From a virus, in IMG/VR virus record IMGVR_UViG_3300013233_000361, positions 1-49,281 of that record: a stretch of 49,281 nucleotides of DNA; one strand, given 5' to 3'. Shown here in pieces: positions 7,651-42,318 of this stretch. The notes under the pieces are model-generated. The model searched no databases and was not told the DNA's origin. It saw only the letters and a list, made by a program, of their open reading frames with translations. Each line of letters opens with the position of its first letter. Position 1 is the stretch's first letter. A program made the translations under genes and the position numbers.

Positions 7651-8268
7651 ATGGAAAGCGCTAAAATGATCGAGAATGCAACCAAGGAAGACGTCCTCGA
7701 GGCGACGAACACGCTAAGACCTCCGGAGCACAGTCTGTTCGGCGATCGCGACGTCCGAACGGTCTTGATGGATCCTCCGTGGCTAGAACGAGGAGGCGGC
7801 AAAAGCAAGCGCGGTGCCGATCGGCACTACCCATTGCTGCCGACGCCGCAGATCCCAGGTGTCGTGCGCTCCTGTGACCACTGGGATCGCCTCTGCGACA
7901 CGGCTCATTGCTACATGTGGGTTACGAACAACTTCCTCGAGGACGGGCTCTGGTTGATGCGTGAGCTCGGATTCAGGTACATCACGAACCTGGTCTGGAC
8001 GAAGGACAAGATGGGCCTAGGGCAATACTTTCGCGGGCAGCATGAGCTACTTCTCTTCGGGGTACGCGGCGAGACGATCCTCACGGACGGCACGTGGTCT
8101 ACTTGGCTCGGCCGCGGCGAGCTCAAGCGGACTCGGCACAGCGAGAAGCCGCTCGCCGCCTACACGATGATCGAAGCAGCGTCGCCGGGGAAATGGCTTG
8201 AAATCTTCGCCCGAGAACCTCGGGATGGTTGGCTCTGTTGGGGCAATGAGATCGAGGCGTCGAAATGA
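7651..8268 (+). CDS. MT-A70 family DNA adenine methyltransferase
   Basis: 205 aa (MESAKMIENATKED). ATG 7666 is an equally possible start because no strong ribosome site marks either. DPPW, the catalytic motif of the MT-A70 N6-adenine methyltransferases, is at residues 41-44 (TVLMDPPWLERGGG). The later strands (CYMWVTNNFLEDGLWLMRELGFRYITNLVWTK) and the end of the fold (KPLAAYTMIEAASPGKWLEIFARE) match the family layout. It would transfer methyl groups from SAM to adenine N6, probably in phage DNA as protection from host restriction. No restriction endonuclease partner is nearby. It is coupled (ATGA) to the following zinc protein. Confidence 0.85.
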   Translation: MESAKMIENATKEDVLEATNTLRPPEHSLFGDRDVRTVLMDPPWLERGGGKSKRGADRHYPLLPTPQIPGVVRSCDHWDRLCDTAHCYMWVTNNFLEDGLWLMRELGFRYITNLVWTKDKMGLGQYFRGQHELLLFGVRGETILTDGTWSTWLGRGELKRTRHSEKPLAAYTMIEAASPGKWLEIFAREPRDGWLCWGNEIEASK

Positions 8269-10665: not shown

Positions 10666-11231
10666 TCGAGAACACAAGCGAGGAGCTCGAGGTTCGGATC
10701 TGGGAGCGACAGCCAGAAGAGACGGATCGCGCATGGTCTGCGTTTGAGATCTTTAGAGGCATGCCTTCGCAGGGGCGGGCGCTAACGCGATCATACGTCC
10801 TCTATCGGCGCATGCGAGATCCTGATTATGGCAGGGGTAAGAAACCACTGCGAACCGTTCCAGGCTCATTCAGGGGCTGGTACAACACGCATGACTGGAG
10901 GGCTCGCGCAACGGCTTGGGATCGTCACAAAGACGAAGCGTTTCTTCTGGCAGACGAATGCGACCACGTCGACAAGCTCCGCGACTTTCGCTCGAGGCTT
11001 CAAAAATATTCGGAGCTCTCGACTCGCAACGGGATCAAATGCATGCGTGTCGTGAAGCGATCTCTCGAGTCTCTTGAGTCAGATGGCGGCGTCGTCCCTC
11101 CCAGTCTTCTCCCGAAGTACATTCAGGCAACGGCGCGACTCTTTGAATCGGCGTCCGCCCAGGAAGCTCAGGCGCTCGCAGTCGACGCTATCCTCGAGGC
11201 GGTAGGTGATGCGCCGGCAGAAATACACTGA
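10650..11231 (+). CDS. Terminase small subunit-like DNA-packaging protein
   Basis: 193 aa (MARKMIENTSEELEV). The segment WERQPEETDRAWSAFEIFRGM with ALTRSYVLYRRM and WRARATAWDRHKDE is the pattern seen in many phage small terminases (Q-P-x-E-x-x-x-A-[WY]-x-A-F, then an HTH-like part and W-x-x-R-A-x-A-W-D). A C-terminal helix region probably mediates oligomerisation. It recognises the packaging start and recruits the large subunit, encoded immediately downstream with a 26-bp overlap. Call based on motif memory and context. Confidence 0.75.
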   Translation: MARKMIENTSEELEVRIWERQPEETDRAWSAFEIFRGMPSQGRALTRSYVLYRRMRDPDYGRGKKPLRTVPGSFRGWYNTHDWRARATAWDRHKDEAFLLADECDHVDKLRDFRSRLQKYSELSTRNGIKCMRVVKRSLESLESDGGVVPPSLLPKYIQATARLFESASAQEAQALAVDAILEAVGDAPAEIH

Positions 11232-12657
11232 TCGAGCTCTAGCTGCGAGCGCGCCTCTCGTTCAGAGCTTTGGCCGGAAACGACGCGAAGCGCTCTTCCC
11301 TACGGTCGAGGCGTTCACCAAATCACACCTCTCCGATTACAAACCACACAAGGCACAGGTCGAGCTCCGCGACGCAATGGCGGCCGCTCGCTTTGTCACA
11401 GTGATCGCGGGGAGGCGTAGTGGGAAGACATACGGCGGCGGTCGGGAGTTCCTTCTCGCTGTGGCTCGTGATTACGCTAGAGCTCGAGGGAAGGGCGAGA
11501 AGTGGTTCGCTCCGTCGAAGCTCACGAAGGAGGCGAAGCCGCTCCTCTGGTATTGGTGTGTAGCGCCGACTTATGCGCTGGGCGTCTATCAACGGAGAGA
11601 GATCTTCGAGGTCCTGGGCGGCCTAGACGGCCCGCTAGTCCTCAAGTGGTACGCGTCGAATAACTCACTCTGGTTACAGGGCGGGATTTTGATCGAGTTC
11701 AAAACGGCCGACAATCCGAACCGGCTCGTCGGCTCAGGGCTAAATGGAGCCTGGGTTGACGAGGGAGCTCGAGTGAAGGCGGAAGCCTGGGCGGATAATC
11801 TTCGGCCGGCGCTGTCGGATCGCCTAGGGTGGTGCCTTGTGACCTCGACGCCGCTCGGGAAGAACTGGCTCTACCGGGAGCTCTGGCGAAACGAGAGCGA
11901 GGACTACGCTCGCGTCCACTTCCGGACGGTCGACAACACGGCGCTTCCTCACCTCGTCGAGGAGGTCGCTCGAGCTCGAGTAGAGCTCCCGAAAGCGATG
12001 TTCCTGCGGAACTACGAAGCGAGCTTCGACGCCTTCGAGGGAAAGATTTTTGAGCACTTCCTAGACGACGCCACGCATATATGGAGCGGAACTCTTCCGC
12101 CGTTTACGCGGCGATTCGCCGGGATTGACTGGGGGCATAGCAATCCGGGGACACAAATCGAGATCGGACAGGCTCTCGGAGGGGAGCTCATTGTATATCG
12201 TGAAGATTACGTCCGGGAGCTCCCGATCGCGGCTGCGCCGAAGTCTCCGCGCGATGACTGTTGGATCAAGAGATTTCGCGCTGCACAAAGACGAGGCGTT
12301 TCGCATGCCTGGGCGGATCCGTCGGAACCCGCTCACATTTTGCAGTGCAGACAGAATGATATCGACGTTCGGCGGGCTAACAATGCGGTGAACCCTGGGA
12401 TCGATCTGCTTTCCACGCTTCTTATGCCAACGGGACGCGACGGGAAGCCGACGCTCATGATCCACGAGTCGTGTACCAATCTGCGCGAAGAGCTATCTTC
12501 CTATCGCTGGGGGGCTAACGGCAAGCCGGTAAAGGAGGATGACCACACCGTCGACGCGTTGCGCTATGGTGTGTATACCGAGGCAAAGCGGAACGGCCTC
12601 TTCGTTCTCGAGAAGCTCGTCGAAGCGTTCCCGTCGGCCTTTGACATGGCGGCGTGA
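11209..12657 (+). CDS. terL: Terminase large subunit (packaging ATPase-nuclease)
   Basis: 482 aa from ATG 11209; a GTG one codon earlier is also possible. The ATPase domain shows Walker A AGRRSGKT (K73, T74) and Walker B GAWVDEG (D184, catalytic E185), followed by the coupling motif VTSTP. The nuclease domain shows RRFAGIDWG (D307), a second acidic site near HAWADPSEP and the C-terminal DDHTVDALRYG, as in RNase H-fold terminase nucleases. It powers DNA translocation into the prohead at the portal, encoded next. Complete length for the family. Confidence 0.92.
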   Translation: MRRQKYTDRALAASAPLVQSFGRKRREALFPTVEAFTKSHLSDYKPHKAQVELRDAMAAARFVTVIAGRRSGKTYGGGREFLLAVARDYARARGKGEKWFAPSKLTKEAKPLLWYWCVAPTYALGVYQRREIFEVLGGLDGPLVLKWYASNNSLWLQGGILIEFKTADNPNRLVGSGLNGAWVDEGARVKAEAWADNLRPALSDRLGWCLVTSTPLGKNWLYRELWRNESEDYARVHFRTVDNTALPHLVEEVARARVELPKAMFLRNYEASFDAFEGKIFEHFLDDATHIWSGTLPPFTRRFAGIDWGHSNPGTQIEIGQALGGELIVYREDYVRELPIAAAPKSPRDDCWIKRFRAAQRRGVSHAWADPSEPAHILQCRQNDIDVRRANNAVNPGIDLLSTLLMPTGRDGKPTLMIHESCTNLREELSSYRWGANGKPVKEDDHTVDALRYGVYTEAKRNGLFVLEKLVEAFPSAFDMAA

Positions 12658-12658
12658 T

Positions 12659-14155
12659 ATGGTCGAATCAGACGGCGTTAGAAGCCTGCGGGAGGCGGTA
12701 CATATGGCGAAGATTCTTGGGTATACGCAGCGAGAGGCGCAGTTCAACACGGCCTCACGCTACTATTGGGGCCGGCAATACGACGATCTCGAGCCCTGGA
12801 CGACTTCAAATTGTCCGCTCCGGGACAAGGCTCCGTCTGTTCAGGTGGGACTGACGAAGAAGGCGGTCAACAAGGTGAATGCTCACTTGTTCGGCGAGGG
12901 TCACCAGCCACACTGGAAGATTGAGGACAGCCGCAACGCTGGAAAGACGTCTGAGGCTCTAGACGAGGCGCTACAGGACGTGTTCGAGCGTAGCGGCTTG
13001 AAGCGTCGCTATCTCGAGCTCGGTCGCCTGGGCACGCTTCACGGTACGGCCGCGATCGGCTTTCATCTTTTTGACGGGGGGCGTTTTGATACGGAGGTTC
13101 TGCAAGCTGGGACGTCGAAGCCTACGTTCGGGAGTGACGACCGAGTTCGTGCGATAGATCTTGGGCTCGACTTCGACGACCTTCTCGAGCTCGACGAGTT
13201 TTGGCGGACGTTCGAAGAGGACGAAGTCTCCGGCAATCGAGATCGCGAGATATGGCATAGGCGGACTTGGACGACGCAACAGACGATCGAATATCAACCG
13301 CTCGACGTGAGAGACGCCCAGGCTACAGGCGCTTCGAGGCTTGAGGATCTGCCGTGGGTAGAGGACGCAGAACAAACGCAGTCGCATGATCTGGGCTTCG
13401 TGCCTGCCGAATGGATTACGCCGATCCCAGTCGCTCATGATATCGACGGAGCTCCGATCGTCGACGCTAGCGAATTCAAGCTCGAGGACGAGATTAACTA
13501 CACGCTGTCGCAGACGGGCCGCGGGATTCGTTACAATCAAGAGCCGACGAAGGTGTTTACGAATGTCGACGCGAACGCCTCGGATCCGGTTCGCGTCGGA
13601 GCGGATAATACCCTCATGGTATCGGCCGATCCGGAGGCGGGTGGCAACGCTGGCGCTTCACTTCTCGAAATGACAGGGAACGGCGCTGTCGTCGCTATGG
13701 ACTATTCCAGAATGGTTCGAAATCTGTTCAATGAGATCGTTCAAGTCGTTGATCATGACCCGCAGCAATTCGCCGGAGCGCTCTCCGGAGTCGCGCTCGA
13801 GCGCCTCCTCTATCCGATGGTACTACGCGTCGAAAATCTTCGGCCTGAGTATGAGCATAAGCTAGGCAGGCTCCTCCGCAAGATGCTCGAAGCGGACAAG
13901 GTTACGGGCGCTGACAACATGGTTGTGTCTGCGCTGTGGCCTCCCGTCGTCTCGCCGACAGCTCAGGATCTCCAAATGTATACGACGGCGGTCGTCGAGC
14001 TCGAGAGTGTTGGGATCATCGATCAAAAGAAGGCGGTCGAAGTCTTGTCGCCGTTTCTGGATATTGAAGACGTCGACGCCTATCTCGCCGACCTCGTCAA
14101 GCGTGAGGTCGCCCAGGGTACGACGACCGGTAAGGCGCCAGCGAATCAACCGTAA
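12659..14155 (+). CDS. Portal protein
   Basis: 498 aa from ATG 12659 (MVESDGVRSLREAVH), two bases after the terminase stop; the longer in-frame reading overlaps terminase and is a shadow. Features include an N-terminal helix, an SPP1-type layout (YWGRQYDDLEPW; KVNAHLFGEGHQ) and a long C-terminal crown/helix region (RLLYPMVLRVENLRPEYEHKLGRLLRKML). It forms the dodecameric vertex through which DNA passes. The terminase-portal-Mu F order supports the call. The TAA overlaps the next ATG (TAATG). Confidence 0.85.
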   Translation: MVESDGVRSLREAVHMAKILGYTQREAQFNTASRYYWGRQYDDLEPWTTSNCPLRDKAPSVQVGLTKKAVNKVNAHLFGEGHQPHWKIEDSRNAGKTSEALDEALQDVFERSGLKRRYLELGRLGTLHGTAAIGFHLFDGGRFDTEVLQAGTSKPTFGSDDRVRAIDLGLDFDDLLELDEFWRTFEEDEVSGNRDREIWHRRTWTTQQTIEYQPLDVRDAQATGASRLEDLPWVEDAEQTQSHDLGFVPAEWITPIPVAHDIDGAPIVDASEFKLEDEINYTLSQTGRGIRYNQEPTKVFTNVDANASDPVRVGADNTLMVSADPEAGGNAGASLLEMTGNGAVVAMDYSRMVRNLFNEIVQVVDHDPQQFAGALSGVALERLLYPMVLRVENLRPEYEHKLGRLLRKMLEADKVTGADNMVVSALWPPVVSPTAQDLQMYTTAVVELESVGIIDQKKAVEVLSPFLDIEDVDAYLADLVKREVAQGTTTGKAPANQP

Positions 14156-17100
14156 TGCCTCGAGTTCCTCCGGAGATACTCGAGCTCGCTAAATCGCATC
14201 ACCGGCAATTGCTAGCGCTCGAGAAGGACGCTCGAGCTCGTGTTCGCGAGGAGCTCGATCGAGCTGTTCGGCGAATTGAACGGGACCGGACGTTTCGCTC
14301 GATCTCCGACTTCCGGGCTCTACAGCTCTCCCAGATAGAGATCCTTGCTCGTATCTCGAGGGAGAAAACGACGGAGGGGCTCGAGCGCGCGCTCGAGGAT
14401 ATCCTTTCAGCCGGTCTTCTCCTCGCCCCAAACCATGCAGATACGGAGCTCCAGAAATGGATCGACTTCCACGGCGGTGAGGCTCGACCGCTTAACCTCG
14501 CCGCATTATCGGCTGCGTCTCGAGATACGCTGATCGAGCGAATCCCAAGGTCGCTTGCAACCTGGGGTCCGGATGTAGCTAGACGCGTTCGTCGAGAGAT
14601 CAGCGCATCGATCTCGACGTTCGCCTCGAGAGAGGAGGCGTTGCAGGGGATTCATGGCGCGATCAATGCGGAGCGATGGAAGGCAGATCGCATTTTCAGA
14701 ACCGAGCTCTTCGACGCGTATAACGAGGCGCATCTTGACAGTCTAGAACTCGCTAGAGACGTCTATTCGGTCGATACGAAGAAGAGCGCGATCGTAACGT
14801 TTGACGCTCGAACCGGCCGCGACTCGTTACCCATGCACGGGCAGGTTAGGGAGCTAGACGAGGACTTTATCGACGGGGACGGCCGTCGTTTCCTTCATCC
14901 TCCCGGCCGACCGAACGATCGGGAGAAAGAGATCCCATGGCTCGACGACTCGCCTCCGGAGATCATTCCTCTCGAGCAAGGAGAGGCGCGTGTTGCGGCG
15001 GATATAGCCAAGCGTCAAGCGATACAGGATCGAGCGCGAGCTCGTCGCGGGCTACCTCCTCTTCGTCGTGGTCCTAGACCTCCGACGATTCCGCTCACAT
15101 TTGACGAGAGGCGTTCTGCGTTGATCGTCGATTGGACGCAGGGTTCGAACAGCAACTCGAGCGTCCTCACCAAGACGGCGGCGCTCGAAGAATTCGGGCT
15201 CGACGGGCAGGTCTGGAATCCGCGTGATCGCGGGATACCTTCGGACACGACGCAGCGACAGGAGGATCTCCGCAGAGCCTATGATGCGACGCAAGCCTTC
15301 TACCAGACGGAGCGCATAGGCTCTGTTCGGCTCTATCGTGGTGTCCGCTCGGATACGATTATCGAAGGAACGGTCGAAGCTTGGACGAGCGATCCTGATA
15401 TTGCGCGGAAGTTTGCGGGCCCAGGCGGTAATATTCTTGTCGCCGATATTGACTCGCGGCGAATCCTCGCGAGCGTCGACGCGCCGGGATGGAAGAATGG
15501 TAGATTCGGAGATCAACGCGAACACCTGATCCTTTCCGACGTTCCGAAGCTTCGATTTAGTCCGGGCGGCTGGTCGTCGGGATCGTTCCAAGCCTTGGAC
15601 CTCGACCCGAACGCGGTCTCTGCGGGCCCATGGGGCGTCCTACAGGACTCGAGCGGGATAGCTCGTCTAGACCATATCCCTAGCGGGAGAACGCTTCTAG
15701 AAGGCGCTGAGTATACGAGAGACGCTCTCGTCGATTCGGCTCAGTACCTCGATCGGTCCGGCTTCTTTGACGGACTGGGAGAGATTACGCCGGCGGGAGC
15801 CGAGGAGCTCGACGACGCAATCGACGTTCTTCGCGTAAAGCTCGGCGGAGCGGTTCCAATCGGAGCGGATTCGGCCCAGGGGATAGAGCTTAGCGGCGTT
15901 CGCTGGGGGCTGGTGAATCAGGACGTCAAGCCGGGAACGCCGGGGAAGTGGTCGCGGCGTAAAATCACGCTTACAGAAGGTGAGACTAGCTTTCACTACA
16001 CAGACCTAAGCGGCGTGATTCAGCAGAATCTGGCCGTCGTGACAGATTCGCGCGGTCCCGGGGAGGGCTACTTCTCGCTTGTTCATGTCCCTACTGGCCG
16101 TCCTCTGTTTGAGGGCGGGCGGACGTTCTATGGCCAAGGGTTTCGGGTACCTGTCGATATTGGCGGCTATCAACAGCGCAACGTGAGAGCGATCGGAGAG
16201 GCGCTTCATACCTTCTTCGACGAGGACGGCGCGGTTGTCGTGGATAAGCTCGAGGACTTCGATCGGCTCGTCGCGCATATGGGTTCGCTCGAATTTGCAG
16301 AAATGCCCAAGGGAGAGACTCCGAAAGAAACGGTCGATCGTCTTTTCTCGATCCTCGAAGATCAAGGCAGCGACGACGAGTTTATCGACTTCATGTTAGA
16401 GCGTGGCAAAGCATTCAGCGGGGGCCCGGAACTGGGGTCGTCGTCTAGAGCTCGCCGCTCACACATTGCCGAAGAAAAGCTCTCCGAAGAGGACCGCTTC
16501 GAAGAGGCGGTAAAGAGCCGACGTGATTCGCTACGTCGCGGTCGATATGCCAGACATGCTGACGCCGACTTCGAGCGGGCGATTCAAGCCGAAGCCGAGA
16601 GACGCGACGCCGAAGCTACCCGACAACGTCTCGAGGCTGCGGAATCTCGCGTTCGACTAGGCTTCGACGTCGGCGACGGCAGACAAGCCGAAGCCCAGGC
16701 GATTGCCGAACGCGAGGCACGCGATACCGCGAAGAAGGAGAAGGACCTCGAGGAGGCGGAACGGAAGCGACTAGCGGCGAAAGAGAAACAAGAGCTTGCG
16801 GAGAGGGATCTTGCGAAAAAGGAGCTCGAGAAAGAACGAGCGAAAGAGCGGGCTCAGATCAAAGCCGACGAAGAGCGCAGAGCAAAGCTGGCAAAGGAGG
16901 CGAAGAAGCGTGCGGAGCTCGCCGAGAAGAAAGCAGCGAAGAAGCGGAGGGACGCGGAGAAGGCTGCGAAGAAGGCTGCGAAGGAGAGGGCGCGCCTCGA
17001 GGAACAAGAGGCAAAAGAGAAGGCTGCGGCGGAGAAGGCGGCCGACGAGCTCGAGAAGAAACGGAAGCGCGACGAGGCGCGAGCTCGTGCGCGAGAGCAA

Positions 17101-18312
17101 AAACAAAAGCTCGAGCGAGAGAACTTCGGGGCTGAACATGATGCGGATGCGGATGCGGACAAGATCCGAGAAGACAACAAGAAGGCCCAGGCGAAGGCTC
17201 AGGCGAAGGCTCAAAGGGCGAAGAAGACTCGAAAGGCAAAGCCGAAGAAGGTCCCGAAGTTTGCGAAGGTTTCGGAGGCGCAAGACTGGGCGGTCAAGAA
17301 CGGACTAACGCAACGGATCAAGCTCAAGAGAACCTACAATCTCGATGGAGTAAATGAAGCGTTCGAGGCTATCGAAGATATGAACGAGCGCTTCGGCTTC
17401 GGCGAACTCAAGTCTATTTCAGATCAGCGACACCACAACAAAGTCTTTGCCAAGGAGGCAGGTGTCCCAAGTGTTCGGGGCGGTAGCAGTGCTACGGCAG
17501 GCTATACAAGCGATGTTCTGATTATCACGAAAAAGGCTTTTGATGCCGAAGGCCTAAACGAGTCGTTCCTTGCAAACAATGCCTATATCGGCTCGATCAG
17601 CGATCCGGCGAAAATAGTCGATAGCCTTCGACGTCGGAGCAAGGATGAGGCGGCGGACCGACTCGAGCTTCTTGCGTCTCAGGGCTGGAAGGATCGTCAA
17701 GTTATCGCACACACTCCCGCCCAGGTCATGCAACACGAACTAGGGCATCGTTTCCACGATACCGCGCAAAGCAGGTTTGCAGATCCTGACCCAGTCAAGG
17801 CGGTTCAGAAGGCGGCTTTCGACCCCATGATTCGCCGCCTGTGGTCTAATGGTTGGGCGACCACGCTAGGGCGCTACGCTTCGGCGGAGCCGGCGGAATA
17901 CGCGGCGGAGTCAATGGTCGCCTATGTCAATGGCGACCACCATCTATTGCCGACGGAGCTCGTCGATTTCTACGCCAAGTTCGATACCAAGGCGACAACA
18001 ACGCGAGCACTGGCCCAGGAACGACTTAGGGCCTGGGAGAGTTCGAGCGCAACGCGTATTGCAAAGCGAGCGGCTCAAGCTGCGGAAGTCGATAGACGCG
18101 AAGCGGAGCTTGCGACGAAGATCGCCAAGATAGGATCACTGAAAAAAGAGAAGGCTGGCTCGCTTTCGGAAGAGGAACTTGTAATCTTGGGACAGGATGC
18201 AGCGGATATGCGCGCACAGTTCGGAGAGGGAAGGCTCGCGGATATGCTCTTCACGGCTTGGAAGAACAAGCGCGCAGCGATTGAAGAGAAGAAGAGGAGA
18301 CTAGGGCTATGA
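14155..18312 (+). CDS. Giant head protein: Mu F-like + ADP-ribosyltransferase-like + coiled coil + HExxH zincin-like
   Basis: 1385 aa (MPRVPPEILELAKSHH). Residues about 1-265 look like the Mu F/SPP1 gp7 minor head domain (FRTELFDAYNEAH; TFDARTGRDSLPMHGQV; RFLHPPGRPNDRE). Residues 300-470 have ADP-ribosyltransferase features: R395 in LYRG, an STS-like WTS (410-412) before DPDIARKFAG, and Q454-x-E456 (DQREHLIL), the Q/E-x-E catalytic pattern. Residues 480-760 hold two related modules (HIPSGRTLLEG and HVPTGRPLFEG). Residues about 790-1050 are a Lys/Glu/Ala-rich coiled coil. The C-terminus has MQHELGHRFH (H1194, E1195, H1198) and, 50 residues later, EPAEYAAES (E1245-E1252), a gluzincin-like zinc site. 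The F-type domain would place it in the capsid, so the enzyme domains could be injected with DNA, like T4 Alt. Enzyme activities are inferred from motifs. There is no frameshift. Confidence 0.75.
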   Translation: MPRVPPEILELAKSHHRQLLALEKDARARVREELDRAVRRIERDRTFRSISDFRALQLSQIEILARISREKTTEGLERALEDILSAGLLLAPNHADTELQKWIDFHGGEARPLNLAALSAASRDTLIERIPRSLATWGPDVARRVRREISASISTFASREEALQGIHGAINAERWKADRIFRTELFDAYNEAHLDSLELARDVYSVDTKKSAIVTFDARTGRDSLPMHGQVRELDEDFIDGDGRRFLHPPGRPNDREKEIPWLDDSPPEIIPLEQGEARVAADIAKRQAIQDRARARRGLPPLRRGPRPPTIPLTFDERRSALIVDWTQGSNSNSSVLTKTAALEEFGLDGQVWNPRDRGIPSDTTQRQEDLRRAYDATQAFYQTERIGSVRLYRGVRSDTIIEGTVEAWTSDPDIARKFAGPGGNILVADIDSRRILASVDAPGWKNGRFGDQREHLILSDVPKLRFSPGGWSSGSFQALDLDPNAVSAGPWGVLQDSSGIARLDHIPSGRTLLEGAEYTRDALVDSAQYLDRSGFFDGLGEITPAGAEELDDAIDVLRVKLGGAVPIGADSAQGIELSGVRWGLVNQDVKPGTPGKWSRRKITLTEGETSFHYTDLSGVIQQNLAVVTDSRGPGEGYFSLVHVPTGRPLFEGGRTFYGQGFRVPVDIGGYQQRNVRAIGEALHTFFDEDGAVVVDKLEDFDRLVAHMGSLEFAEMPKGETPKETVDRLFSILEDQGSDDEFIDFMLERGKAFSGGPELGSSSRARRSHIAEEKLSEEDRFEEAVKSRRDSLRRGRYARHADADFERAIQAEAERRDAEATRQRLEAAESRVRLGFDVGDGRQAEAQAIAEREARDTAKKEKDLEEAERKRLAAKEKQELAERDLAKKELEKERAKERAQIKADEERRAKLAKEAKKRAELAEKKAAKKRRDAEKAAKKAAKERARLEEQEAKEKAAAEKAADELEKKRKRDEARARAREQKQKLERENFGAEHDADADADKIREDNKKAQAKAQAKAQRAKKTRKAKPKKVPKFAKVSEAQDWAVKNGLTQRIKLKRTYNLDGVNEAFEAIEDMNERFGFGELKSISDQRHHNKVFAKEAGVPSVRGGSSATAGYTSDVLIITKKAFDAEGLNESFLANNAYIGSISDPAKIVDSLRRRSKDEAADRLELLASQGWKDRQVIAHTPAQVMQHELGHRFHDTAQSRFADPDPVKAVQKAAFDPMIRRLWSNGWATTLGRYASAEPAEYAAESMVAYVNGDHHLLPTELVDFYAKFDTKATTTRALAQERLRAWESSSATRIAKRAAQAAEVDRREAELATKIAKIGSLKKEKAGSLSEEELVILGQDAADMRAQFGEGRLADMLFTAWKNKRAAIEEKKRRLGL

Positions 18313-18527
18313 CTACGACAACGAATTCGCTGCAATGTCCGCTCTGCAATAGGTGGCGAAGTGACTTCGAAGGGACAGGGTCTTGTGAGGCTTTCCCCGA
18401 AGGCATCAAGTTGGAGGTCTACAACGGCGAGGTCCCGCACAACGAACCCATCTCGGGAGACCATGGAATCCGCTTTGAGCTCACGAAAGATCCGCGACGG
18501 CTTGCTTCGCTTGGGGCGGCGAAATGA
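18309..18527 (+). CDS. Small Cys-rich protein in head operon
   Basis: 72 aa (MTTTTNSLQCPLCNRWR), ATGA-coupled to the giant head gene. CPLC at residues 10-13 and a further Cys (GSCEAFPEG) could bind metal. A short HNEPISGDHG segment follows. It resembles small phage proteins with a partial zinc knuckle inserted between head genes. Function unknown. Confidence 0.6.
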   Translation: MTTTTNSLQCPLCNRWRSDFEGTGSCEAFPEGIKLEVYNGEVPHNEPISGDHGIRFELTKDPRRLASLGAAK

Positions 18528-18709
18528 GACGACGTATCTACAAGACGCTAGACGGGGAAGAGGTCGTCGCATTGCTTCCTGAGAATGAGCGAGATCTCGC
18601 TCAGCTCGAGGCAAACGCAAGGGATCCGGAGGGAAACGACCTCGACGCGAGGCATTCTTTTGCCGATGAACTCGACAGCGCAAAGAGTGCCAAAGACGTT
18701 CCGGCTTGA
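18524..18709 (+). CDS. Hypothetical small acidic protein in head operon
   Basis: 61 aa (MRRRIYKTLDGEEVVAL), ATGA-coupled to the preceding gene. A basic start precedes an acidic helical body (LPENERDLAQLEANARD). No family is recognised. It is followed by a 7-bp hairpin (TTCGGGA 18719-18725 / TCCCGAA 18734-18740) without a T-run, just before the scaffold ribosome site. Confidence 0.55.
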   Translation: MRRRIYKTLDGEEVVALLPENERDLAQLEANARDPEGNDLDARHSFADELDSAKSAKDVPA

Positions 18710-18764
18710 TTCGCTTCGTTCGGGAAGGCAATCTCCCGAAAACCTCTGGAGGAGACGCCACAAG

Positions 18765-19490
18765 ATGAAACGAAAAATGTTCAACCCTCGATTTCTCTTT
18801 TCCACGGCTCCGGGACTGGAGTCGATCCTAGCGTTCAAAGACGACCCGGAAAACGCCGACGCCGACGCCGACGCCGATGCCGATGAAAGCGATCAGAATT
18901 CGGACGCGGACGCCGACGCGACCGGTGATAATGCACAAGGTGAGCAGGAAGATACTGGTGCCGAAGCGTCTACTCCCCGATCTTCAGCTACGAATGACGC
19001 CAAGCTAAAGGCGCTCGAGCGCAAGCTTGAGAAGGAAAGAAAGGCAAGGGAGAAGCTCGAGGCGGAAAAGAAAGCCGCCGACGACGCCAAAAAGAGCGAT
19101 CTCGAGAAAGCGCAAGACGCAGCAAAGACGGCCCAGGAGAAACAGGTCGCGGCGGAGAGACGCGTCGAGGAGCTCCGAATCGAGAACGAGATTCGGACGA
19201 AGGTCGTCGCAGCCGGTATTCGAGGAGAACGAATCGAGGCGACTCTTCGATTGATTGATCGTTCAGCGATCGAGATCGAGGACGGAGAGATAGACGGAGT
19301 CGACGACGCCGTCGAAGCAGTGAAGAAGGACTTTCCGGAATTCTTCGGATCAAAGGCGACGAGCTCGCCGACGACCGGAGGAGGAAAAGGCAGCGACCGA
19401 GACGGAGACGACGACAACGGTCCGCAGTCGGATTACGAAGTCGGGCAAGCGCTCGCGAAGCAACGGGACGAACACAAGTCTAGGCTTTAA
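18765..19490 (+). CDS. Scaffolding-like prohead protein
   Basis: 241 aa from ATG 18765 (MKRKMFNPRFLF), preceded by GGAGGAG; upstream in-frame sequence is shadow. Acidic D-A repeats at residues about 30-55 (NADADADADADES) are followed by a long coiled coil (KLKALERKLEKERKAREKLEAEKKA), then a folded segment (IRTKVVAAGIRGERIEATLRLIDR) and a Gly/Asp-rich linker with a charged C-terminus. Acidic, coiled-coil proteins directly upstream of the capsid gene usually act as scaffolds that direct shell assembly and are then lost. No protease is evident nearby. Confidence 0.75.
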   Translation: MKRKMFNPRFLFSTAPGLESILAFKDDPENADADADADADESDQNSDADADATGDNAQGEQEDTGAEASTPRSSATNDAKLKALERKLEKERKAREKLEAEKKAADDAKKSDLEKAQDAAKTAQEKQVAAERRVEELRIENEIRTKVVAAGIRGERIEATLRLIDRSAIEIEDGEIDGVDDAVEAVKKDFPEFFGSKATSSPTTGGGKGSDRDGDDDNGPQSDYEVGQALAKQRDEHKSRL

Positions 19491-41138: not shown

Positions 41139-41501
41139 ATGAGTACTCCGCTGGCGTGGTATGCGATTCTTGAGGGCGTCGACGGGGCGCGCTCTGGCCT
41201 GATCAAGGTCGAGCCAGGACCCGTGCGCGCATATGAGATCGAGGAGGTGTTTTCGGCGATGTTTGGGGCCGGCAGTCCGCTAGGCCCGAGCACGGACGAG
41301 CCAGCGCACTCCGAGCTGACATGCACGGAGGAAGCCGCAAAGTACAAGTCGCTGACTCTGCTCGGCGTCGAGGATATTCGGCAATGGGATCTTGTTGAGC
41401 TCAGGCAAAAAGTGGCACGTCAAGCCGACGACGCGGAGAAGGAGAAGGAGGAGGCCGAGCGAGCCGAGTATGAACGACTCAAGGCTAAGTTTGATGACTA
41501 G
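41139..41501 (+). CDS. Fibre-region hypothetical protein
   Basis: 120 aa from ATG 41139 (MSTPLAWYAILEGVDGA), with GAGGATGAG upstream; in-frame sequence before that overlaps the previous gene. A globular first part is followed by a charged C-terminal helix (VARQADDAEKEKEEAERAEYERL). It may be a fibre assembly chaperone. The last eight bases overlap the sulfotransferase start. Confidence 0.58.
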   Translation: MSTPLAWYAILEGVDGARSGLIKVEPGPVRAYEIEEVFSAMFGAGSPLGPSTDEPAHSELTCTEEAAKYKSLTLLGVEDIRQWDLVELRQKVARQADDAEKEKEEAERAEYERLKAKFDD

Positions 41502-42318
41502 TCAGTTCCACGTCATCGCCGGATTGCCACGCAGCGGGTCGACGCTTCTCTGCAATCTGCTCAACCAGAATCCCGGGTTCAGCGCATCCTCGACATCCGC
41601 GCTCGCTGGAACCCTCGCGGCCGTGGCGAATCACTGGACGGTTGCGCCGGAGGTCAAGAGCGATCTAGCAGACAGCCGCGTCGAGACCGAGTCCCGCATG
41701 GAAGAGGTCATGAAGGGCGTTGTCGACCGATGGTACGAGGGAGGATGGTACGATGCGCACGACCGCGAGCGCGTCCTATTCGACAAGGGGCGGATGTGGG
41801 TCGGGATGACCGACAGGCTTCACCAGCTCTATCCAGACGCGCGCGTGTTCGTGACCGTCCGGGATCCGCGCGATGTTCTCGCGTCGGTCTGGCGCCGGCA
41901 CCTCGTCAATCCGATCCTCGACGAGCACATGGGCACGACGCTACAGGCGAGGGCGGACGCGATGTTTTCCCCGGACGGTATCATCGGCGGGCCTCTCACC
42001 CATCTGGAGGACCTCATCCGGCGCAAATCGGAGGTCGTCGTACCGGTGGTGTTCGAGGACTTGGCGCGCGACCCCGAGCGTGTGTTGAGGCTCATCTATG
42101 CTGAGATCGGTCAGGACTACTGGGTCGGCCACCAGTTTGAGGATATCGAGTCCACGGCCACGGACCTCGACGCACTCTACCTGAACAAGTTCCCGCACGA
42201 TGGTTCTGGCAAGGTCGAGCCTCCCTCTGGTCACTGGTCAGACGTTATCCCGGAGCCGCTCGCCGCTCAGGTGGTAGCTCGCTACCCGGTCTACTGCGTA
42301 TTTTTCGGTTATGGGTGA
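41494..42318 (+). CDS. Sulfotransferase family protein
   Basis: 274 aa from ATG 41494 (MTSQFHVIAGLPRSGST). The PAPS-binding loop GLPRSGSTLL (residues 10-19) is the canonical 5'-phosphosulfate motif (P-R-S-G-[ST]-[ST]). VTVRDPRDVLAS (120-131) is the 3'-phosphate-binding motif. The C-terminal half fits the P-loop NTPase-like fold (VVPVVFEDLARDPERVLRLIYAEIG). It would transfer sulfate from PAPS to a sugar or protein. Next to the tail fibre it may modify host surface glycans or the fibre itself. Its codon style (GTC/GCC/ACC, little CTCGAG) differs from most of the genome, suggesting recent transfer with the fibre tip. Confidence 0.82.
   Translation: MTSQFHVIAGLPRSGSTLLCNLLNQNPGFSASSTSALAGTLAAVANHWTVAPEVKSDLADSRVETESRMEEVMKGVVDRWYEGGWYDAHDRERVLFDKGRMWVGMTDRLHQLYPDARVFVTVRDPRDVLASVWRRHLVNPILDEHMGTTLQARADAMFSPDGIIGGPLTHLEDLIRRKSEVVVPVVFEDLARDPERVLRLIYAEIGQDYWVGHQFEDIESTATDLDALYLNKFPHDGSGKVEPPSGHWSDVIPEPLAAQVVARYPVYCVFFGYG

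What the first reader, a model, noticed from the sequence alone, without database searches (positions are those of the whole stretch)
14155..18312. Capsid-targeted multi-enzyme protein: Mu F-like domain fused to ADP-ribosyltransferase-like and HExxH zincin-like domains
The 1385-aa reading frame carries an F-type head domain, an ART triad (R395, W-T-S 410-412, Q454-x-E456), two related beta modules, about 260 residues of charged coiled coil and HELGH with a downstream E-x-x-x-Y-x-x-E. Mu F-ART fusions are known, and T4 Alt shows that ARTs can be packaged and injected. Adding a C-terminal zinc peptidase through a long helical spacer resembles a polymorphic toxin layout, with both ADP-ribosylation and proteolysis delivered at DNA entry. 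The enzyme activities are inference from motifs.
Basis: partly seen in the sequence, partly recalled or inferred. Interest (0 to 1): 0.8.

Follow-up and report, generated by a model that had tools for sequence, protein, structure and literature searches.

The report
Phage head protein carrying two enzymes
This is a large phage head protein whose tail end carries what look like two host-attacking enzymes (one that would attach ADP-ribose, one zinc-dependent protein cutter), a new and unusually rich example of a known kind of phage-carried weapon; related phages carry the same head part with different enzymes or with none.

Summary
The 1385-aa frame is real, and it sits between the portal and scaffold genes of a myovirus-like contig. 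Its N-terminus is a Mu F/SPP1 gp7-type head domain.

The C-terminal zinc-peptidase claim is supported: homology to a stand-alone protein next to a DarA gene on a Moritella plasmid and to a zincin fused to MuF in another phage, plus the lethal-factor-type signature HExxH … Y-x6-E-xx-AE. The ADP-ribosyltransferase (ART) claim is plausible but only motif-level. R395 and Q454-x-E456 are conserved under purifying selection in a relative, but no family model matches, the STS motif is degenerate, and the structure models failed. The 'two related beta modules' are weakly supported.

Relatives show modular turnover. L033 has MuF-ART-beta without the zincin. L032, 94% identical DNA to L033, lacks exactly the ART-beta block. 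Other relatives carry kinase-like, Nudix, C39, deamidase or zincin ends. Two small overlapping ORFs follow: orf61 is shared with L033 and L032; orf72 occurs only here, together with the zincin, and is a candidate immunity gene.

MuF-ART and MuF-zincin proteins are published, so this is a new variant of a known kind. The long-coil ART-plus-zincin combination and the zincin-plus-orf72 cassette are the new points.

The parts
14155..18312 (+). 1385-aa MuF multi-enzyme protein
   Evidence: Open frame, start codon overlaps the stop of the portal gene
14155..14949 (+). N-terminal head region, residues 1-265, with MuF domain about 140-262 (motif RTEL...AYN, IVT-D-RT, HPPGRPNDRE)
   Evidence: PF04233 E=0.0022 sub-threshold; PHROG head morphogenesis; 33-63% identity to post-portal genes of relatives
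15091..15600 (+). ADP-ribosyltransferase-like region, residues 313-482; R395 at 15337-15339, W-T-S 15382-15390, Q-R-E 15514-15522
   Evidence: 60% identical to L033 with R395, W410, T411, Q454, E456 kept, dN 0.38 / dS 1.73; no library hit
15601..16299 (+). two beta-rich modules, residues 483-715, relation to each other weak
   Evidence: 40% identical to L033; low-confidence model shows strands plus two helices twice; repeat match only in the window
16450..17304 (+). charged Ala/Lys/Glu helical spacer, residues 766-1050
   Evidence: composition; first part shared with L033, which ends within it
17332..18009 (+). zincin-like metallopeptidase, residues 1060-1285; HELGH at 17734-17748, Y-x6-E-xx-AE at 17875-17910
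   Evidence: homologous to Moritella plasmid protein P0006 (E=0.02 in database, z=23) and MuF-zincin of L024 (z=8.4); Pfam ATLF sub-threshold in relatives P0006 and L051
18309..18527 (+). orf72: 72-aa Cys/His-containing ORF, ATGA overlap; candidate immunity gene for the zincin
   Evidence: Present only in the window; L033 and L032, which lack the zincin, lack it
18524..18709 (+). orf61: 61-aa ORF, ATGA overlap; candidate immunity gene for the ART, or a structural gene
   Evidence: 41% identical over 49 aa to the ORF directly after the MuF gene in L033; also in L032
12539..14155 (+). portal protein
   Evidence: SPP1_portal PF05133 E=3e-11
11206..12657 (+). terminase large subunit
   Evidence: PF03237 and PHROG 2
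18585..19490 (+). scaffold protein (true start probably downstream)
   Evidence: PF06810 E=2e-15

Best explanation
The gene encodes a capsid-borne, multi-domain effector. The N-terminal MuF domain is made with the head genes and docks at the portal/procapsid, as SPP1 gp7 does (1-2 copies per capsid). The rest of the protein is cargo that enters the host with the DNA: an R/QxE-type ART-like enzyme, two small beta modules, a long helical spacer and a lethal-factor-type zincin. The ART would modify host proteins; QxE rather than ExE suggests a target other than arginine. The zincin would cleave a host protein or release the ART by cutting its own chain. Small overlapping downstream ORFs (orf72, orf61) may protect the producing cell until assembly. 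Shown here: the frame, the MuF domain, gene position, zincin homology, conservation of the ART motif, module gain and loss among relatives. Inferred: packaging, injection, both enzyme activities, their targets, immunity.
For: Gene order terminase-portal-MuF gene-small ORFs-scaffold. MuF matches. Relatives with the same type of N-terminus carry other ends. By Pfam: Nudix (L028), C39 peptidase (L034) and Gln deamidase (L044). By inspection: kinase-like (L003, L004, L028) and zincin (L024, L042, L043, L051). The ART block is as conserved as the head domain (60% vs 63%, dN/dS about 0.2) and is deleted precisely in L032 while both flanks remain at 94% DNA identity, so it looks like cargo, not head structure. 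Zincin homology with Y-x6-E-xx-AE spacing as in the lethal-factor-type family. The nearest zincin relative lies directly after a DarA gene; in P1, DarA is an internal head protein (PMC12810830). Small ORFs overlap the gene end.
Against: No library recognises the ART. T4 Alt similarity is not significant (127 of 1000 shuffles). The STS motif is WTS here and WTD in L033. Structure models failed. No virion proteomics. Whether 1385 residues fit and pass through the portal unprocessed is unknown. No integrase was found, whereas Jamet et al. found MuF toxins only in temperate phages.
Confidence: 0.62

Rival explanations
1. The zincin is a processing protease, not an effector: it cuts the long protein inside the head or after injection and so frees the ART part, as proposed for P1 DdrB-type polyvalent proteins.
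For: Published proposal that metallopeptidases in polyvalent proteins process their own chain (PMC5512222). A 1385-aa chain with a 285-residue spacer between the two enzymes. The homologue in the Moritella plasmid is a stand-alone gene beside a DarA gene.
Against: L033 keeps the ART without any zincin, so release by it is not required. The other MuF zincins lie C-terminal to MuF with no ART noticed.
Confidence: 0.3
2. The zincin module plus orf72 is a toxin-immunity cassette picked up by an ancestor that already had MuF-ART plus orf61, giving a two-toxin MuF protein with one immunity gene for each toxin.
For: Zincin and orf72 are together present here and together absent in L033 and L032; orf61 is present in all three. 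Start/stop overlaps at each junction. MuF toxin genes are usually followed by a small ORF (PMC5576092) and MuF-ART Bxa has two immunity proteins (PMC11699363). Zincin GC3 59.7 vs 63-66 upstream.
Against: Three genomes only; loss in the L033 lineage is as possible as gain. orf72 has no characterised homologue found. No binding data. orf61 stays in ART-less L032, though that deletion looks recent.
Confidence: 0.28
3. The ART-like segment is not a working transferase: a decayed or coincidental motif in a structural extension of the head protein.
For: No profile match; WTS/WTD instead of STS; Alt comparison not significant.
Against: R395, W410, T411, F420, Q454 and E456 conserved at 60% overall identity, with dN/dS about 0.2. 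Signature in only 4 of 5000 shuffles. Order of elements matches the R-S-E ART pattern. MuF-ART fusions are common.
Confidence: 0.2
4. The zincin is the head maturation protease of this phage.
For: No other capsid protease was recognised among the head genes scanned.
Against: L033 and L032 have the same head gene order, no zincin and no replacement noticed.
Confidence: 0.04

Closest known systems
MuF polymorphic toxins (Jamet et al. 2017, PMC5576092; EFV toxin; Bxa, PMC11699363; Percival gp4 and Goodman MuF-VIP2, PMC7302621)
   Same: N-terminal MuF domain in the packaging module, variable enzymatic C-termini including ART (14%) and metallopeptidase (20%), small ORF downstream. Percival/Floof show presence/absence of the ART as L033/L032 do here.
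   Different: The architectures in the text I read give one toxin domain per protein; here ART-like and zincin domains are in one chain, with beta modules and a 285-residue helical spacer. No lysogeny gene (tyrosine integrase) found.
Phage polyvalent proteins (Iyer et al. 2017, PMC5512222)
   Same: Several unrelated enzymatic domains in one virion-context protein; metallopeptidase the commonest, ART the commonest modifier; self-processing proposed.
   Different: Their ARTs are the H-Y-D type (ART-PolyVal); that paper says R-S-E ARTs are not in genuine polyvalent proteins. The ART here has R and QxE, and PF18760 does not match.
T4 Alt
   Same: Head-packaged, injected ART; R-S-E type; similar order of motif elements by eye.
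   Different: No MuF domain, no zincin; pairwise similarity not significant; QxE instead of Alt's ExE.
P1 darA operon of internal head proteins
   Same: The closest zincin relative (P0006) is encoded directly after a DarA gene in Moritella plasmid pMR24a.
   Different: There the zincin is a separate protein; DarA itself is not part of the window protein.

Membership tests
MuF (SPP1 gp7 / Mu F-like) head protein | MuF domain sequence | tested here: met
   PF04233 E=0.0022 (19.2 bits vs cut-off 29.6), PHROG head morphogenesis E=7e-5; relatives L042-L051 pass the cut-off
MuF (SPP1 gp7 / Mu F-like) head protein | Encoded next to the portal in the packaging module | tested here: met
   Overlaps the portal stop, before scaffold
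MuF (SPP1 gp7 / Mu F-like) head protein | Present in virions | not testable with these tools
   needs proteomics
MuF polymorphic toxin | Variable C-terminal toxin domain on a conserved MuF N-terminus | tested here: met
   L003, L028, L033, L034, L044, L024 and others
MuF polymorphic toxin | Small ORF (<150 aa) directly downstream | tested here: met
   orf72 and orf61; immunity function untested
MuF polymorphic toxin | Temperate phage | tested here: inconclusive
   No PF00589 integrase in the record, which may be incomplete; serine recombinases and repressors not tested
R-S-E ADP-ribosyltransferase (Alt/VIP2 clade) | R, STS, (E/Q)xE active-site residues | tested here: inconclusive
   R and QxE conserved in both; STS is WTS / WTD
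R-S-E ADP-ribosyltransferase (Alt/VIP2 clade) | Significant profile or fold similarity | tested here: inconclusive
   No profile match; model pLDDT 41.6, so the fold was not really tested
ART-PolyVal (H-Y-D type) | Match to PF18760 | tested here: not met
   no match at E<=10
Lethal-factor-type zincin (gluzincin) | HExxH plus downstream Tyr and Glu ligand with Y-x6-E spacing | tested here: met
   H1194-E1195-x-x-H1198, Y1241, E1248; same spacing in P0006, L024, L043, L051
Lethal-factor-type zincin (gluzincin) | Significant profile match | tested here: inconclusive
   PF07737 only sub-threshold, and only in relatives (0.0035 and 0.00057); none for the window domain
Lethal-factor-type zincin (gluzincin) | Zincin fold | tested here: inconclusive
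   model pLDDT 48.8; best PDB match a zinc metallopeptidase 4l7a but E=2.4
Phage polyvalent protein | Two or more unrelated enzymatic domains in one virion-context chain | tested here: inconclusive
   zincin supported by homology, ART at motif level only

The most novel reading that the evidence does not exclude
A two-toxin MuF protein assembled by stacking toxin-immunity cassettes: an R/QxE ART guarded by orf61 and a lethal-factor-type zincin guarded by orf72, both carried in the head on one chain and delivered with the DNA.
Probability: 0.22. Interest if true: 0.65.

Novelty: new variant of a known kind. Interest (0 to 1): 0.45.

Why it matters
What MuF effectors do at infection is an open question. 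Here nature supplies a matched series: the same head protein with ART plus zincin (window), with ART only (L033), and with neither in frame (L032). That would allow the contribution of each enzyme, and of each small neighbouring ORF, to be tested. It would also ask whether one head protein can carry and deliver two different enzymes.

Tried and rejected
- Whole-protein Pfam/PHROG scans gave nothing; domain pieces were needed.
- Scans of viral and genome contigs with the whole protein, the ART or the zincin found no relative; terminase, portal and MuF queries did.
- AlphaFold on ART+beta (3 sequences, pLDDT 41.6) and zincin (3 sequences, pLDDT 48.8) was not usable; the fold searches had no match at E<=0.001.
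- NCBIfam Rhs core hit on the zincin (E=0.0005, 26 residues, below cut-off): rejected as a chance match around 'RFADPDP'.
- Touem01 phage hit to the L033 ART (E=0.8): a MuF-like protein with no ART signature seen.
- Beta modules vs the C-terminal half of the Moritella DarA: not significant.
- Window ART vs the C-terminal ART-like ends of L003/L028: not significant.
- No homologue of orf72 in phages.
- L051 and L043 small ORFs as related zincin immunity genes: only a hint (117 of 3000 shuffles).

Full report
What is there. The window is a whole virus record of 49,281 bases with terminase, portal, scaffold, probable capsid and tail-sheath genes. The frame 14155-18312 codes 1385 residues. Its start overlaps the portal stop, and its stop overlaps a 72-codon ORF, which in turn overlaps a 61-codon ORF.

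Head domain. Residues 145-240 match Phage_Mu_F below the cut-off (E=0.0022) and two PHROG head-morphogenesis families. The same N-terminus follows the portal in L025, L004 and L003 with 63, 40 and 33% identity. A scan with this alignment gave 25 related loci, several of which pass Pfam's MuF cut-off.

ART-like region. No library or PDB sequence search recognises it, and the polyvalent ART family PF18760 does not match. The support is comparative. L033 is 49% identical over residues 1-881. The ART block is 60% identical with dN/dS about 0.22, as constrained as the head domain at 63%, and R395, W410, T411, F420, Q454 and E456 are kept, while S412 is D. A general ART signature is found in 4 of 5000 shuffles (11 with S/D allowed), and in 984 ORFs only in these two proteins; the signature was written after seeing the motif. 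By eye the order of elements follows T4 Alt, but the alignment score does not beat shuffles. The reading 'R/QxE-type ART' is therefore likely but unproven. QxE would point away from arginine as target (established ART knowledge).

Zincin. Residues 1062-1277 match a Moritella plasmid protein at E=0.02 in a 7-billion-base search, 25% identity over 226 positions, shuffle z=23. They also match the MuF-fused zincin of L024 (z=8.4). HExGH followed by Y-x6-E-xx-AE is shared with L024, L043, L051 and the Moritella protein, and has the Tyr/Glu spacing known for lethal-factor-type peptidases (own knowledge). Pfam's ATLF model hits two of these relatives below its cut-off. The Moritella gene follows a DarA gene, linking this zincin type to head-internal anti-restriction proteins; P1 DarA lines the head interior (PMC12810830).

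Module turnover. L033 ends in the spacer at residue 914, has no zincin, and is followed by an orf61 homologue and scaffold. L032 is the same phage type at 94% DNA identity and lacks exactly 1370 bp, gene positions 961-2330, which removes ART and beta modules out of frame. A misassembly is possible, but both flanks are intact. Other relatives carry kinase-like plus ART-like ends (L003, L028), Nudix (L028), C39 peptidase (L034) and Gln deamidase (L044). No homologue of this zincin was found in the 10 related records searched. orf72 appears only with the zincin.

Mechanism. Most likely the MuF part holds a few copies at the portal inside the head, and the cargo enters the host with DNA. Published work supports this for MuF-ART and MuF-peptidase proteins as a class (PMC5576092, PMC9503650, PMC7302621, PMC11699363) without direct proof here. 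Whether the zincin acts on the host or on its own chain is open; L033 shows the ART does not depend on it.

Novelty. MuF-ART and MuF-zincin fusions are known, and proteins with ART and metallopeptidase in one chain are known (PMC5512222). That paper states that R-S-E ARTs are absent from genuine polyvalent proteins. If the ART call holds, R-S-E-type ART plus lethal-factor-type zincin on one MuF chain is a new variant. I did not see this combination in the papers read, which is not proof of absence. Structure prediction did not help.

Noticed in passing
L026:3761-4624 (Moritella sp. 24 plasmid pMR24a): Stand-alone zincin gene directly after a DarA gene (PF18788, PF18789), with a very large SNF2-related protein gene nearby: a P1-like anti-restriction operon with a peptidase gene.
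   Followed up: partly
L032:8752-10126: Natural 1370-bp deletion of ART and beta modules relative to L033, flanks 94% identical, out of frame.
   Followed up: yes
L004:13071-15335 and L037:12232-12495: MuF plus kinase-like protein whose ART-like end (GDNENE motif) lies in another frame, suggesting a frameshift in that contig.
   Followed up: partly
L028:5142-9506: 1454-aa MuF protein with Nudix, kinase-like and C-terminal ART-like parts in one chain.
   Followed up: partly
L003:9527-11164, L004, L028: A kinase-like domain (LGGSTGAELV...DNGGA) recurrent in MuF proteins, not recognised by Pfam or NCBIfam.
   Followed up: no
window 41392-42318: Sulfotransferase gene (PF13469, E=4e-17) to the right of the tail-gene region, unusual for a phage.
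   Followed up: no
window 7651-8268: MT-A70-type adenine methyltransferase gene upstream of the terminase genes, possible self-protection of DNA.
   Followed up: no
L024:11706-14000: MuF protein with a zincin and a further C-terminal domain of unknown kind (contains EETIHATQAK).
   Followed up: no
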